From positions 1 through 37,985 of the forward strand of contig JAGYLA010000005.1 in the NCBI GenBank assembly GCA_018401215.1: 37,985 nucleotides of DNA. The letters are read 5' to 3'. This DNA comes from Bacilli bacterium (GTDB taxonomy: Bacteria; Bacillota_I; Bacilli_A; MAG-NZ). Below are positions 9,939-37,985 of the stretch, in pieces. The notes beneath the pieces were generated by a model, which searched no databases, had not been told where the DNA came from, and worked only from the letters and a program-made list of their open reading frames with translations. The translations under genes and the position numbers were made by a program. The stretch's first letter is position 1, and each line of letters starts with the position of its first letter.

Positions 9939-10937
9939 ATGAAAAAATCCAAAGTAACCATTTATGAAGTAGCGGGCAAAGCAAACGTCTCCTTGGCGAC
10001 GGTGTCCCGCGTCTTAAATTACCCAGAAAAGGTCAAAGCATCGACGCGCGAGCGGGTGATGGGGGTAATCAACGAACTCGGGTATCGCCCGAATGCAATC
10101 GCGCGTGGACTCGCCTCAAGAAAATCCACCTTCATTGGCATCGTCGTGCCGGACTTTTCCCGTGCCTCTGTTGCCGAAGCGGTGAACGGAATTGCCTTAT
10201 TGGCGAACCAATATGGCTATCAAATTTTAGTTTTTCCGGCCGAAGGTGAAAATCGCTCCAGCAAAGACGTCTGGGCAGACGTTGTTGCCTCCCAAGTGGA
10301 CGGTGTGTTGTACCTCAATGATTTGGTGACGGACAAGGACGTCGAATACATGAACACAATGAGTGTTCCTATCGTCATTGCAAATGTCTTACTTGATAAA
10401 GACCAAACGATGCCAACCGTAAACATTGACTATGAACGTGCGGCCTATGAAATCACAAAAAAATTAATCTCACGCGGTCGCAAACAAATCATGCTCGCGC
10501 AAACGCGTCGTGAGTACTCGATGAACAATGCGAAGGAAATCGGTTATTTGCGAGCATTGAAGGAAGCAGGCATTGACCCAATTGTTCTACGCACGTCCGG
10601 CAAACCGCATGTGAATTACCCTGTCGTCACTGACTTTCTTCGCAAAACAACGGTTGATGCAATCATTGGTGTGCGTGACTCGATCGCGGTTGCTTGTTTG
10701 AACGTCGCAATGGATTTGGGACACAATGTGCCAAATGACATTGAAGTGTATGGGTTTCAAAATACTAGAACAGCCTTACTAGCTCGTCCTCAATTGTCGA
10801 CGATTGATGTCCCAACGTTTGAAATTGGGAAACGATCAATGGAAATGTTATCCATCCTAATGAACGACGAACCACTCGACCAAAACGCTGTGATTATTCC
10901 TTATGGGATTGTTGAGCGCGGATCGACCAAACAATAA
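9939..10937 (+). CDS. ccpA: LacI/GalR family regulator, CcpA-like
   Basis: A 332-aa repressor with an N-terminal LacI helix-turn-helix (VTIYEVAGKANVSLATVSRV), the hinge helix NAIARGLASRKS, and a periplasmic-binding-protein-like effector domain. By eye it resembles B. subtilis CcpA throughout: GYRPNAIARGLAS, the NTRTALLARPQLSTIDVPTFEIG segment, and a VERGSTKQ C-terminus compared with LRKSTKS. CcpA with HPr-Ser-P controls carbon catabolite genes. Whether this protein binds HPr-Ser-P cannot be judged here, so another LacI-family role is possible. The upstream box suggests autoregulation, and a similar box lies before gap. It is followed by tyrS after a 40-nt gap holding a strong hairpin. Confidence 0.8.
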   Translation: MKKSKVTIYEVAGKANVSLATVSRVLNYPEKVKASTRERVMGVINELGYRPNAIARGLASRKSTFIGIVVPDFSRASVAEAVNGIALLANQYGYQILVFPAEGENRSSKDVWADVVASQVDGVLYLNDLVTDKDVEYMNTMSVPIVIANVLLDKDQTMPTVNIDYERAAYEITKKLISRGRKQIMLAQTRREYSMNNAKEIGYLRALKEAGIDPIVLRTSGKPHVNYPVVTDFLRKTTVDAIIGVRDSIAVACLNVAMDLGHNVPNDIEVYGFQNTRTALLARPQLSTIDVPTFEIGKRSMEMLSILMNDEPLDQNAVIIPYGIVERGSTKQ

Positions 10938-17906: not shown

Positions 17907-18940
17907 TGATCAAAGATAACGTAAAAATAGCAGTCGAAGATTTGGTCGTACATTTCACGACCAATGCCGGAATGGTGCAAGCCGTTCGTGGCATCTCCTT
18001 TGACTTACACGAAGGTGAAACCCTAGCCATCGTTGGTGAGTCAGGGTCTGGAAAAAGCGTTACCTCAAGAGCGATTATTGGAATCTTAAGTCCCAATGCT
18101 CGTGTCTTGGGTGGTTCGATCATGTACGAAGACAAGAATTTACTAGAGTTTAGTGAAGCAGATTATGCAGGCATTCGGGGCAATAAAATCTCGATGATTT
18201 TTCAAGACCCAATGTCCAGTTTGAATCCAATCATGCGCATCGGGCAACAAATTACCGAGGCAATGGTCGTTAAACTTAAAATCAGCAAAGAAGAAGCCAA
18301 AGAACGAGCAATCAAAATCATGGAAGAAGTGGGGATTGGTGAAGCAGAAAAACGCTATTACCAATATCCATTTCAGTTCTCTGGTGGGATGCGTCAACGC
18401 ATCGTTATTGCGATTGCGTTAGTCACCGAACCAGAAATCTTGATTTGTGATGAGCCAACCACGGCACTTGACGTAACGATTCAAGCGCAAATCCTTGATT
18501 TGATTAACGATTTGAAGGTGACGAAAAACTTATCGGTTATCTTCATTACGCACGACCTTGGGGTTGTTGCAAACATGGCAGACCGCGTTGCGGTCATGTA
18601 TGCTGGTAAAATTGTTGAAATCGGAACGGCTCGTGAGATTTTCTATGATCCGCGTCATCCGTACACCTGGGCACTGCTTTCCAGCATGCCCGACCTTGAT
18701 AGCAAAGAAAAACTCTTTGCGATTCCTGGAACACCACCGGACATGTTGTATCCCCCCAAAGGCGATGCCTTTGCGGACCGCAACTCGTTTGCGATGAAAA
18801 TTGACTTTGAAGAAGAACCACCGTTTTTCAAAATATCTGATTCTCACTATGCAGCGACTTGGTTAGAACATCCTGATGTCGCTGATGTTGAACTGCCACC
18901 AATTTTAAAAGCTCGCTTGAAAGGGAAACAACTCACATGA
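17906..18940 (+). CDS. oppD: Oligopeptide ABC transporter ATP-binding protein OppD
   Basis: A cytoplasmic ATPase of ~344 aa. Walker A is GESGSGKS, the Q-loop is in MIFQDPMSSLNPIM, the signature is FSGGMRQRIVIA, Walker B is ILICDEPTTALDVTIQAQ, and the H-loop is FITHDLGVVA. The C-terminal extension typical of Opp/Dpp ATPases is present (RHPYTWALLSSMP); I do not see an obvious cluster of iron-sulfur cysteines. ATG 17906 follows AGAGGG at 17892-17897; a GTG immediately before it is the alternative. It overlaps oppC and oppF by 1-4 nt. Confidence 0.94.
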   Translation: MIKDNVKIAVEDLVVHFTTNAGMVQAVRGISFDLHEGETLAIVGESGSGKSVTSRAIIGILSPNARVLGGSIMYEDKNLLEFSEADYAGIRGNKISMIFQDPMSSLNPIMRIGQQITEAMVVKLKISKEEAKERAIKIMEEVGIGEAEKRYYQYPFQFSGGMRQRIVIAIALVTEPEILICDEPTTALDVTIQAQILDLINDLKVTKNLSVIFITHDLGVVANMADRVAVMYAGKIVEIGTAREIFYDPRHPYTWALLSSMPDLDSKEKLFAIPGTPPDMLYPPKGDAFADRNSFAMKIDFEEEPPFFKISDSHYAATWLEHPDVADVELPPILKARLKGKQLT

Positions 18941-20067
18941 GCCAAGAACAACCAATCCTAATCATCGAGAACTTACGTCAGTACTTTAAAAGCGGGTTTG
19001 GAAAACGAAAAGTCGTCGTCCAAGCCGTTGATGATGTCTCGTTTCATATTTTCAAAGGCGAAGTATTTGGCTTGGTCGGCGAATCCGGTTGTGGGAAAAC
19101 AACCACAGGCCGCAGCATCATCAAGTTGTATCAACCAGATGGCGGCAAAGTCATTTTCAATGGCAATGTTGTATCTGAAGGTTTTATTGAACAAAAAAAC
19201 CAGCTTGATGCGATCAACGTTCAACTCAAAGACAACGAATTGGCTGTGGAACAAAAAACTGCACTCCAAGAGCAGGCTCGTTCGTTGCGTCAAGACATTT
19301 CTCGCATCAAACGCGAGATGAAAAAAGAGCCAGACCGTAGTGTGATGAACAAGATGCAAATGATCTTTCAAGATCCCATTGCTTCGCTCAATCCACGAAT
19401 GACAGTCAAAGAAATTATTGCTGAAGGATTGCGCATTAACGGTGAAAAAGACAATCAAGTGATTACCGATAAGGTAAACAATGCACTTGAGACGGTTGGA
19501 CTCGTTCGCGAACACGCAAACCGTTATCCGCATGAGTTTTCTGGCGGTCAACGTCAACGCATCGGGGTTGCTCGAGCGATGATTGTTGAACCAGAATTGA
19601 TTATCGCTGATGAACCAATCAGTGCACTGGATGTCTCGATTCAAGCGCAAGTCATCAATTTGTTGAATGAGTTGCGTGAGCGTCTTGGTTTAACGATTTT
19701 GTTCATTGCCCATGACTTGTCGGTGGTCAAATACTTCTCAGACCGCATTGCGGTCATGTATTTTGGTAAAATTGTTGAATTGACAACGTCCGATGAACTC
19801 TTTAAGAATCCGCTTCATCCGTACACCAAGTCCTTGTTGTCAGCGGTACCAAGACCGGATCCGGATTCAGAGAAAGTTCGTAAACGAATTCGCTACAATC
19901 CAGCGGTTGACCACGACTACTCTGTGGAACAACCTAGCATGGTTGAAATTCGACCTGGACATTTTGTTTATGCGTCGCCCTCAGAGATTACCAAGTACAA
20001 AAGTGAACTCAAAGGCACCGTCAATGAGTCAACAAAAGACAGTGTTGCAACATTAAAAACAGCATAA
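18937..20067 (+). CDS. oppF: Oligopeptide ABC transporter ATP-binding protein OppF with coiled-coil insertion
   Basis: The second ATPase of the transporter, 376 aa. Walker A is GESGCGKTT (48-56), the Q-loop is in MIFQDPIASLNPRM, the signature is FSGGQRQRIGVARA, Walker B is LIIADEPISALDVSIQ, and the H-loop is FIAHDLSVV. Between Walker A and the Q-loop it carries an extra ~55 residues (~80-135), charged and helical with heptad-like leucines (LDAINVQLKDNELAVEQ, LQEQARSLRQDISRIKRE), which reads as a coiled coil. The usual OppF has only a short linker there. Last gene of the operon. Confidence 0.93.
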   Translation: MSQEQPILIIENLRQYFKSGFGKRKVVVQAVDDVSFHIFKGEVFGLVGESGCGKTTTGRSIIKLYQPDGGKVIFNGNVVSEGFIEQKNQLDAINVQLKDNELAVEQKTALQEQARSLRQDISRIKREMKKEPDRSVMNKMQMIFQDPIASLNPRMTVKEIIAEGLRINGEKDNQVITDKVNNALETVGLVREHANRYPHEFSGGQRQRIGVARAMIVEPELIIADEPISALDVSIQAQVINLLNELRERLGLTILFIAHDLSVVKYFSDRIAVMYFGKIVELTTSDELFKNPLHPYTKSLLSAVPRPDPDSEKVRKRIRYNPAVDHDYSVEQPSMVEIRPGHFVYASPSEITKYKSELKGTVNESTKDSVATLKTA

Positions 20068-36062: not shown

Positions 36063-36471
36063 TTTCTTCATTGAAGAAACGTTTGAAGCAGGGCTTGTTT
36101 TGCGTGGCACGGAAATCAAGAGCATTCGCTTGGGCAATATTCAGTTAAAAGAGAGCTATGCCCGCATTCGTGATGGAGAATGTTTCATCATCGGGATGCA
36201 TATTTCACCGTTTGAACAAGGCAACATTCACAACCATGACCCCCTTCGGGACAAAAAGGTCTTGTTGCACAAGCAACAAATCCGTAAAATAGAAGCACGC
36301 TTGCAAAAGGAAGGAGTCACACTCGTTCCGTTAAACATCAAACTCAAGGATGGGTTTGCCAAATGCGATTTAGGCATCGCCAAAGGGAAACAACTCCACG
36401 ACAAACGAGAAGACTTGAAACAAAAACAAGCCAAGCGGGAAATGGCATCTGCGTTAAAACACCGATATTAG
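36010..36471 (+). CDS. smpB: SsrA-binding protein SmpB
   Basis: Binds the tRNA-like domain of tmRNA and brings it to stalled ribosomes. The beta-barrel core is recognisable (ALHDFFIEETFEAGLVLRGTE, KSIRLGNIQLKESYARI). The C-terminal basic tail ends KREMASALKHRY. 153 aa, normal. SD AAGGAG (35998-36003) lies inside rnr; the genes overlap by 53 nt. The stop TAG (36469-36471) ends on the first base of tmRNA. Confidence 0.96.
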   Translation: MPRHGEHIVARNKKALHDFFIEETFEAGLVLRGTEIKSIRLGNIQLKESYARIRDGECFIIGMHISPFEQGNIHNHDPLRDKKVLLHKQQIRKIEARLQKEGVTLVPLNIKLKDGFAKCDLGIAKGKQLHDKREDLKQKQAKREMASALKHRY

Positions 36472-36824
36472 GGGTTGTTACGGATTCGACAGAGTCGTTG
36501 AACTTGTAGTAGCATGTCTAGGTTGCGCTAGTCAAAACGCCGAGGATTCCATAACTGGAAACCAAAACTTAAATCCTGTCTACGCTTAATATAAACTAGC
36601 GAGACCCGTTCCTTCTTGGACGCCTATAAAAGAAGTCGAACGAAGCCCATAGGCTAGAGGCGTAATATGCCGCCTGAATGTTGGGCCTTGAAGTTGATCA
36701 GGATCGCGTTGCTTGTTGGCCGTCGTTGCCCAAGAGCATCGTTAAACCAATGCCACGACTAAACATGTAGAAGCTGCTTGAACAATACCTTTGGACGTGG
36801 GTTCGACTCCCACCAACTCCACCA
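36471..36824 (+). ncRNA. ssrA: Transfer-messenger RNA (tmRNA)
   Basis: The 5' end GGGGTTGTTACGGATTCGAC and the 3' end GGTTCGACTCCCACCAACTCC-ACCA are classic. GGGGTTG (36471-36477) pairs with CAACTCC to form the 7-bp acceptor stem, with the G3-U pair that marks alanine charging, and CCA is encoded. The resume codon is best placed at GGA 36557, since it follows ATAACT as in B. subtilis. The tag would be Ala-GNQNLNPVYA, stop TAA at 36587-36589. The middle region should fold into pseudoknots. G1 is also the last base of the smpB stop codon. Confidence 0.95.
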
Positions 36825-36832
36825 GGTCATTC

Positions 36833-36861
36833 AAAGATCATCGATTGGATGATCTTTTTTT
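36833..36861 (+). terminator. Intrinsic terminator of ssrA
   Basis: AAAGATCATC (36833-36842) pairs with GATGATCTTT (36848-36857) around GATTG, then T to 36861. A near copy of this hairpin ends the fic gene. Confidence 0.9.
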
Positions 36862-36873
36862 ATATCATAATGA

Positions 36874-36905
36874 TGGACCTATTATACCGATAACGGTATA
36901 ATAGG
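36874..36905 (+). promoter_or_regulatory. fic promoter within a perfect 12-bp inverted repeat
   Basis: CCTATTATACCG (36878-36889) and CGGTATAATAGG (36894-36905) are perfect inverted repeats with a 4-nt centre. The right arm holds the -10 TATAAT (36897-36902); the -35 TGGACC (36874-36879) lies 17 nt upstream and overlaps the left arm. A repressor bound here would block the promoter. SD GGAGGG at 36910-36915. Confidence 0.8.
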
Positions 36906-36921
36906 TAGTGGAGGGACGCCG

Positions 36922-37842
36922 ATGAAATATCTAACGACGAAAGAAATCGCATCGAAGTGGAATGTGAATGATCGACGAGTTCGCGTGTTGTGTGAAGAAG
37001 GTAGAATCGAAGGCGCCTTCAAAGCAGGAAAGACGTGGATGATTGCTGAGGATGCAACCAAACCCTATGATGCAAGAACATCGATTAAAAAAACGTACCT
37101 TGGATTGGCGTATGACTTTTCTGACATCGACCGGTTGAAACAAGAGATTGATCAACATCGACCTCTAACGGCCCATGTTACAAGGTCCCTTCGTGAAAAA
37201 CTAATTGTTGATTGGACGTATCATTCCAATGCCATTGAGGGAAACACGTTAACGTTAACGGAAACGAAGGTCGTCTTAGAAGGGATTACCATTGGTGGGA
37301 AAAGTGTGATTGAACACTTGGAAGCGATCAATCACAAGCATGCGATTGAATACATCGAGAGCATCATCCATCAAGACATCGACATTACACCAAACGTGCT
37401 TCGAAGCATCCATCGATTGATTTTAAAAGACATCGACGATGACAATGCGGGCTCATACCGCAAGGCAAACGTCATCATTAGTGGAGCAACCCATATTCCC
37501 CCAAACCATCTCCTTGTTCCCGATTTCATGCAGAAGATGTTTGCGGAGTATACAAAAGAATGGAGCCAGTATCATCCAGTGATTCAAGCTTGTCTTTTGC
37601 ATGGTGAATTTGTCAAGGTTCATCCCTTTATTGATGGTAATGGGCGAACGGCGAGACTGCTTCTCAATCTTGCATTGATGAAACATGGCTATCCACCGAT
37701 TGTGATCACAAAACACAGTCGATTGGACTATTATGACGCACTCGATACAGCGCATACGACGTTGGATTATTCGAAATTTATCAAACTAGTCTCAAGCTTT
37801 CTTGTTGAATCTGAATTACTGTGGCTGCAAATCATTGGCTGA
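36922..37842 (+). CDS. Fic-domain protein with N-terminal helix-turn-helix
   Basis: A 306-aa two-part protein. Residues 1-50 form an excisionase/MerR-like DNA-binding fold (YLTTKEIASKWNVNDRRVRV, then EGRIEGAFKAGKTWMI). The rest is a Fic domain with the full active motif HPFIDGNGRTAR (His234 catalytic), which in relatives moves AMP from ATP onto a Ser, Thr or Tyr. The inhibitory motif SNAIEGN (102-108, Glu106) lies N-terminal to it, so it is an autoinhibited class II Fic. ATG 36922 has SD GGAGGG. It lies between ssrA and a degenerate copy of the ssrA tail, with its own operator and terminator; the HTH probably binds the palindrome. Target unknown. Confidence 0.9.
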   Translation: MKYLTTKEIASKWNVNDRRVRVLCEEGRIEGAFKAGKTWMIAEDATKPYDARTSIKKTYLGLAYDFSDIDRLKQEIDQHRPLTAHVTRSLREKLIVDWTYHSNAIEGNTLTLTETKVVLEGITIGGKSVIEHLEAINHKHAIEYIESIIHQDIDITPNVLRSIHRLILKDIDDDNAGSYRKANVIISGATHIPPNHLLVPDFMQKMFAEYTKEWSQYHPVIQACLLHGEFVKVHPFIDGNGRTARLLLNLALMKHGYPPIVITKHSRLDYYDALDTAHTTLDYSKFIKLVSSFLVESELLWLQIIG

Positions 37843-37847
37843 CATTT

Positions 37848-37916
37848 CCATTGGACGTGGGGTCGACTCCGTCCACCAAGGACCATTCAAAGATCATCCA
37901 TCGGATGATCTTTTTA
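37848..37916 (+). repeat. Degenerate copy of the ssrA 3' end and terminator (att-like)
   Basis: CC-A-TTGGACGTGGG-G-TCGACTCC resembles the T-arm end of tmRNA (36788 onward), and the similarity continues through CATTCAAAGATCATC and the hairpin. Differences include the T-loop (TTCGACT became GTCGACT), loss of the perfect T-stem, and a shortened CCA region, so it is not a working tmRNA end. It starts six bases after the fic stop. It looks like a decayed attachment-site duplication flanking the fic cassette. Confidence 0.7.
37889..37915 (+). terminator. Intrinsic terminator of fic (copy of the ssrA terminator)
   Basis: AAAGATCATCC (37889-37899) pairs with GGATGATCTTT (37903-37913) around ATC, T5 follows. 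The remaining 70 bases to the window end hold no gene I can support; TATAGT near 37938 could be a -10 for a gene outside. Confidence 0.85.
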
Positions 37917-37985
37917 AATACCATCGATATACCTTGTTATAGTAGTAGCATTTAACGGTTTGTGAATGAACACTGTGTTTCCAAG

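What the first reader, a model, noticed from the sequence alone, without database searches (positions are those of the whole stretch)
36788..37916. Fic gene cassette bounded by ssrA and a decayed copy of the ssrA tail
The tmRNA 3' end is a well-known target for site-specific integrases. Here about 1.06 kb after the true end a degraded copy of the T-arm, CCA region and terminator recurs, and the only gene between the two copies is a Fic protein with its own operator. This fits a small integrated unit, or the stump of a larger island that lost its integrase, leaving one self-regulated gene behind. Alternatively, several elements may have stacked at this site and more copies lie to the right.
Basis: partly seen in the sequence, partly recalled or inferred. 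Interest (0 to 1): 0.65.

Follow-up and report, generated by a model that had tools for sequence, protein, structure and literature searches.

The report
One-gene Fic unit inserted behind ssrA
Right behind this bacterium's tmRNA gene sits a one-gene DNA unit, framed by two copies of the tmRNA gene's tail, whose relatives have moved between distantly related bacteria as a single self-regulated Fic gene without a recombinase of their own; it is a very small member of a mobile-DNA hot spot whose principle is already known elsewhere.

Summary
The ssrA tail plus terminator (36782-36868) recurs at 37842-37924 (about 80% identity, E 2.5e-16; shuffles never approach the score). The only gene between is fic (36922-37842): excisionase-type HTH plus class II Fic domain, with a palindromic operator found upstream of 52 of 63 relatives. 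The interpretation largely holds. Comparable fic units of about 1.1 kb lie behind ssrA in four other genera of two other families (G303, G090, G014, G248). Fic identities and tree contradict species relationships, so the unit moved horizontally. ssrA 3' ends in this class are a stacking hot spot: the window's own family (G002) carries a 28-kb element with a tyrosine integrase there, and relatives carry arrays of small units, most without a recombinase. Many units, with or without fic, share a conserved end. So fic is best read as a non-autonomous (cis-mobilizable) cassette, less well as a stump that lost its integrase here. Closest known: Dehalococcoides ssrA-specific islands (CcrB-like recombinase DsiB; about half lack integration genes). 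Mobilisation in trans, circular forms and Fic's job are inferred. The contig ends 61 bp after the second copy, so further stacking here cannot be seen; no strict empty site was found.

The parts
36471..36824 (+). ssrA (tmRNA), tag GNQNLNPVYA; its 3' end is the insertion target and stays intact
   Evidence: ARAGORN, Rfam RF00023 144.6 bits
36782..36868 (+). left copy of the repeat: end of ssrA (T-arm, acceptor, CCA) plus terminator
   Evidence: 79.5% to 37842-37924 over 88 columns, E 2.5e-16; shuffles
36833..36861 (+). left terminator hairpin AAAGATCATCGATTGGATGATCTTTTTTT
   Evidence: sequence, fold
36878..36905 (.). palindromic operator CCTATTATACCGATAACGGTATAATAGG in front of fic, overlapping a -10-like TATAAT
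   Evidence: inverted self-match; CCGN4CGG in 52 of 63 relatives versus 1.1% background
36922..37842 (+). fic, 306 aa: excisionase-type HTH plus class II Fic domain (SNAIEGN, HPFIDGNGR)
37842..37924 (+). right copy of the repeat: tail with shortened acceptor stem, plus terminator
37888..37916 (+). right terminator hairpin AAAGATCATCCATCGGATGATCTTTTT

Best explanation
A non-autonomous, single-gene cassette (about 1.06 kb) inserted at the 3' end of ssrA, a hot spot where site-specific recombinases stack elements. The unit is [tail core - terminator - operator/promoter - fic - tail copy]. Integration keeps a working ssrA tail and terminator on the left and leaves a displaced tail copy on the right. 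The cassette carries no recombinase, so its movement must use one supplied in trans (Xer-like tyrosine integrases or CcrB/DsiB-like serine recombinases, both found at this site in relatives), or co-excision with a neighbouring element (accretion), or homologous recombination between tail copies. The cargo is a class II, self-inhibited Fic AMP-transferase that probably represses its own promoter through its HTH and the palindromic operator, which would make it safe to carry alone, without a separate antitoxin. Shown: the repeats, comparable units in other families, horizontal movement of the gene, the hot spot, absence of a recombinase in the unit, the conserved operator. Inferred: recombinase in trans, circular intermediate, autorepression, AMPylation. 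In the window's own genome the unit may no longer be mobile (right core damaged, no candidate recombinase found in the assembled part).
For: Repeat far above chance. Units with fic behind ssrA in G303 and G090 (first gene), G014 and G248 (inside arrays), most with tail copies or unit ends on both sides. Fic 73% window-G303 versus SmpB 48% and RNase R 35%; G014-G248 92% versus SmpB 64%; G014-G053 88% across families; one supported clade mixing families f1, f9, f12, f22, with f12 or f22 held together rejected. Hot spot in the window's family: G002 tyrosine integrase behind ssrA and a matching tail copy 28.45 kb on. Recombinase-free units in G047, G131, G036, G248, G303, G118, G090, G234. Same flank with different array contents in G303/G118 and G014/G047. 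Shared end motif in units with and without fic.
Against: No excision, circle or transfer shown. The G000 assembly (78.6%) holds no PF07508 recombinase and only one tyrosine recombinase, of housekeeping Xer length. The two terminators beside fic resemble each other within a host but differ between hosts, which a simple circle from a distant donor does not predict; local duplication, gene conversion or homologous recombination could be involved. The window's right end keeps a T-arm copy instead of the arm seen beside other fics. No strict empty site found.
Confidence: 0.62

Rival explanations
1. Stump of a larger ssrA island: a full element with an integrase inserted here and later lost everything but fic and the right end.
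For: Larger islands with the same right end exist (G166 22 kb, G118 13 kb); decay of the right core; no recombinase left in the assembly.
Against: A near-identical minimal unit in five genera of three families would need the same erosion each time; in G014 and G248 it sits as its own unit inside arrays.
Confidence: 0.2
2. Homologous recombination only: foreign DNA holding fic next to an ssrA tail was built in through tail and terminator homology, without any site-specific recombinase.
For: Left and right terminators are alike within each host (window, G090, G014); no recombinase in the unit.
Against: Element-specific end arms, inverse to the arm right of the core, speak for a recombinase site; integrases are found at this very site.
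Confidence: 0.12
3. Old vertically inherited ssrA-fic arrangement with a chance or gene-conversion repeat.
For: Present in three families of one class; the right copy in the window is partly damaged.
Against: Not seen behind ssrA in the window's family members G001 and G002 nor in most loci surveyed; Fic identities and tree conflict with families.
Confidence: 0.05

Closest known systems
Dehalococcoides ssrA-specific genomic islands (ssrA-GIs; PMC3146451)
   Same: Insertion at the ssrA 3' end, direct repeats of the ssrA tail, tandem stacking, an element-specific motif just before each repeat; 15 of 31 islands lack integration genes and are proposed to be cis-mobilizable; CcrB-like serine recombinases are also found in two of the relatives here.
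   Different: Other phylum; this unit is one gene of about 1 kb rather than many kb; no recombinase of that kind is found in the window's genome; the TTCAG of the motif lies at a different distance from the tail; relatives also have tyrosine integrases at the site.
SCC elements of Staphylococcus and their ccr-less remnants (from own knowledge)
   Same: Ccr-type recombinase logic, target in the end of a single-copy essential gene, tandem and recombinase-less members.
   Different: Target is ssrA, not rlmH; recombinases in relatives score far below the curated Ccr cut-offs.
Integron gene cassettes (from own knowledge)
   Same: One- or two-gene units with unrelated cargo, each with a recombination site and a hairpin, and no recombinase in most units.
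   Different: No IntI found; sites derive from the ssrA tail and terminator; G014's enzyme is Xer-like.
Class II Fic AMP-transferases (FICD, SoFic, PADLOC PDC-S04)
   Same: HPFIDGNGR active motif and N-terminal SxxxE(G/N) inhibitory motif; best solved relatives are FICD (E 1.8e-37); PADLOC models PDC-S04 and SoFic match.
   Different: Carries an N-terminal excisionase-type HTH and a matching operator; target unknown.

Membership tests
[quoted passage not shown]
ssrA-specific island / cis-mobilizable element (Dehalococcoides type) | Absent or replaced at the same site in related genomes | tested here: inconclusive
   Different contents at the same flank in G303/G118 and G014/G047; no congener of the window's organism is held, no strict empty site
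ssrA-specific island / cis-mobilizable element (Dehalococcoides type) | Horizontal acquisition | tested here: met
ssrA-specific island (full, DsiB type) | Integration module with CcrB-like serine recombinase | tested here: not met
   none in the unit or the assembled genome
cis-mobilizable element | att sites still recombine, mobilised by another element | not testable with these tools
   needs an experiment
Integron cassette array | IntI-type integrase with attI | tested here: not met
   only one Xer-like tyrosine recombinase in G000; the G014 enzyme scores far better with Xer models than with the integron model
Class II Fic AMP-transferase | Fic domain with HPFx[DE]GNGR and N-terminal [ST]xxxE[GN] | tested here: met
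Class II Fic AMP-transferase | AMPylation activity held back by the inhibitory glutamate | not testable with these tools
   needs an assay
Two-gene toxin-antitoxin module | Adjacent separate antitoxin gene | tested here: not met
   No other gene between the repeats

The most novel reading that the evidence does not exclude
An integron-like system built on tmRNA: in these relatives of Bacilli the ssrA 3' end works as the entry site of arrays of one- or two-gene cassettes, each carrying its own tail-plus-terminator recombination site, moved in trans by occasional Xer- or CcrB-like recombinases; the HTH-Fic cassette is its most widely shared member seen here.
Probability: 0.2. Interest if true: 0.75.

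Novelty: new variant of a known kind. Interest (0 to 1): 0.5.

Why it matters
It shows that mobile units at the tmRNA gene can be as small as a single self-regulated gene and still spread between families, and it extends the ssrA stacking hot spot known from Dehalococcoides to a group of Firmicutes-related bacteria with small genomes. The recombinase-poor arrays give a testable case of cassette capture without integrons, and the Fic unit offers a clean system to ask why a probably self-inhibited AMP-transferase is repeatedly carried alone between attachment sites.

Tried and rejected
Chance repeat: rejected by shuffles. Vertical inheritance: rejected by identities and tree tests. Phage or plasmid cargo: no confirmed relative in the viral-contig scan; phage records hold only Fics under 60% identity and plasmid records nearly so. 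Fic-specific right-end motif: rejected, since units without fic share it. Same motif as the Dehalococcoides TTCAGRSMGMRKCCA: TTCAG is shared but its spacing to the tail differs; left open. Strict empty sites in g71 (G289) and g76 (G104): flanks did not align, so not proven. Serine recombinases elsewhere in G047 and G248 have no tail site beside them. The repeat flagged around window 18336-19013 falls in two neighbouring, similar ABC-transporter ATPase genes, ordinary. No paper in the held library was found that describes Fic as a unit at tmRNA.

Full report
OBSERVATION. ARAGORN places ssrA at 36471-36824. The last 43 nt of ssrA and the next 44 nt (terminator) recur at 37842-37924 with 79.5% identity over 88 columns (E 2.5e-16); the alignment can be drawn out to 37941. 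Against 500 dinucleotide-preserving shuffles the local score is 49 versus a maximum of 20, and the tail without the terminator still stands out (21 versus 15). Between the copies is one intact gene, fic (36922-37842), whose stop codon touches the second copy. The palindromic operator at 36878-36905 is real. The window is the complete contig C45 of a 796-kb, 78.6%-complete assembly, so it ends 61 bp after the second copy; the terminator pattern occurs nowhere else in the assembly.

THE GENE. Fic domain (Pfam E 4e-22) with an N-terminal HTH_17-like stretch; one of the PHROG families matching the HTH part is an excisionase. The protein has the active motif HPFIDGNGR and the class II inhibitory motif SNAIEGN; the nearest solved structures are FICD; PADLOC matches PDC-S04 and SoFic. 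A CCGN4CGG palindrome stands within 150 bp upstream of fic in 52 of 63 HTH-Fic loci against 1.1% of background stretches, usually between -35-like and -10-like sequences. Autorepression by the HTH is an inference from this.

COMPARABLE UNITS ELSEWHERE. In G014 the homologue (67%) is the last unit of an array behind ssrA and is bounded on both sides by tail copies. In G303 (73%) and G090 (72%) fic is the first gene behind ssrA, with a unit end or a tail copy after it; in G303 an IS3-type element seems to interrupt the right core. In G248 (67%) it is the second unit of an array. L083, L084, L134 and G053 carry fic without ssrA in view or away from it, but keep the same right end after its stop codon.

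HORIZONTAL MOVEMENT. Window and G303 share 73% in Fic but 48% in SmpB and 35% in RNase R; G014 and G248 92% versus 64% in SmpB; G014 and G053, of different families, 88% in Fic. The nine unit-type fics form one supported clade that mixes families f1, f9, f12 and f22, and trees holding f12 or f22 together are rejected. G001 and G002, of the window's own family, lack a close fic. An old duplication cannot be excluded by the tree alone; the high cross-family identities argue against it as the whole story.

THE SITE. ssrA 3' ends in this class are an integration hot spot. In G002 (window's family, one contig) a tyrosine integrase lies directly behind ssrA and a matching tail copy lies 28.45 kb on, followed by what looks like a native terminator; further decayed copies and recombinase remnants follow. 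G014 has two near-identical tyrosine-integrase units. G166 has a 22-kb island with two CcrB-like serine recombinases and genes that look like a type III restriction system. G047, G131, G036, G248, G303, G118, G090 and G234 have arrays or units without PF00589 or PF07508 genes; where tested, cargo is unrelated between units (kinase-like, SnoaL-like, AAA/DUF4143, unknown). The same chromosomal flank follows different contents in G303/G118 and in G014/G047.

THE ENDS. Many units, with or without fic, end in sequences like GTGGACGCGGATAAGTTTCAGGGACCC plus CTCAACTCCACCA, and g13 genomes in GGGACGTGGATACTAACCGGAACG plus CCCCATCTCCACCA. Right of the core, array units begin ATAGTACCCGCGTCC and a hairpin terminator. 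GGACGCGGRTA and TAYCCGCGTCC are inverse to each other around the tail core, so the reconstructed site is an imperfect palindrome of about 52 bp, a form and length that fit a large serine recombinase; that a CcrB-like enzyme uses it is inferred from such genes inside the G166 island and beside the G046 one. The motif is rare: 3 places in 395 class genomes at up to 3 mismatches, two of them beside fic. The window's right end instead keeps a T-arm copy, as tyrosine-integrase units do, so which enzyme moved this copy is open.

BACKGROUND TEST. Within 700 bp, direct repeats at E 1e-6 or better flank 11 of 85 fic genes and 11 of 533 other genes of similar length in the same loci (the window itself was too close to the contig end to be counted). 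So Fic genes in general are enriched between repeats; some of these repeats are other things, such as CRISPR-like repeats or ends of coding genes.

VERDICT. A single-gene, non-autonomous unit at the ssrA tail, of a horizontally spread kind, most like the recombinase-less members of the Dehalococcoides ssrA islands (PMC3146451). The principle is known; the one-gene size, the repeated use of a self-regulated Fic, and the recombinase-poor arrays in these bacteria are new detail as far as the searches here show. Excision, enzyme and biological role remain to be shown.

Noticed in passing
L189 (G047), ssrA end to +8373: Array of four small units behind ssrA, each closed by a tail copy and opened by ATAGTACCCGCGTCC plus a terminator hairpin, with unrelated cargo and no recombinase.
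   Followed up: partly
L266 (G234), +163 to +1485 after ssrA: A cassette with a 258-aa SnoaL-like gene is joined to the 3' part of a fic gene at a core-like CAACTCCACGA, so fic is cut; the congener G090 has ssrA-fic intact.
   Followed up: partly
L140 and L151 (Cohnella), around 10001-10720: Fic genes without HTH flanked by CRISPR-like repeats (GTCGCTCCCTACGCGGGAGCGTGGATTGAAAC).
   Followed up: no
L099 3876-4075 and 5374-5570: HTH-Fic gene of a Clostridia MAG between 200-bp direct repeats (69%) that contain a tRNA-like tail and a terminator.
   Followed up: partly
L106 9426-10001 (Fusibacter bizertensis): Several inverted, decayed copies of the tmRNA tail lie between the tmRNA gene and an HTH-Fic gene.
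   Followed up: no
L098 and L111, flanks of fic: Direct repeats beside fic look like duplicated 3' ends of protein-coding genes rather than of RNA genes.
   Followed up: no
L084 (contig filed as Methanosarcinaceae archaeon): Carries a fic unit 73% identical to the window's with the same right end and tail; the contig is probably mis-binned bacterial DNA.
   Followed up: no
L066 12545-15008 (G013): 2.45-kb unit behind ssrA holding an IS3-type transposase pair and a Fic without HTH that points towards ssrA.
   Followed up: no
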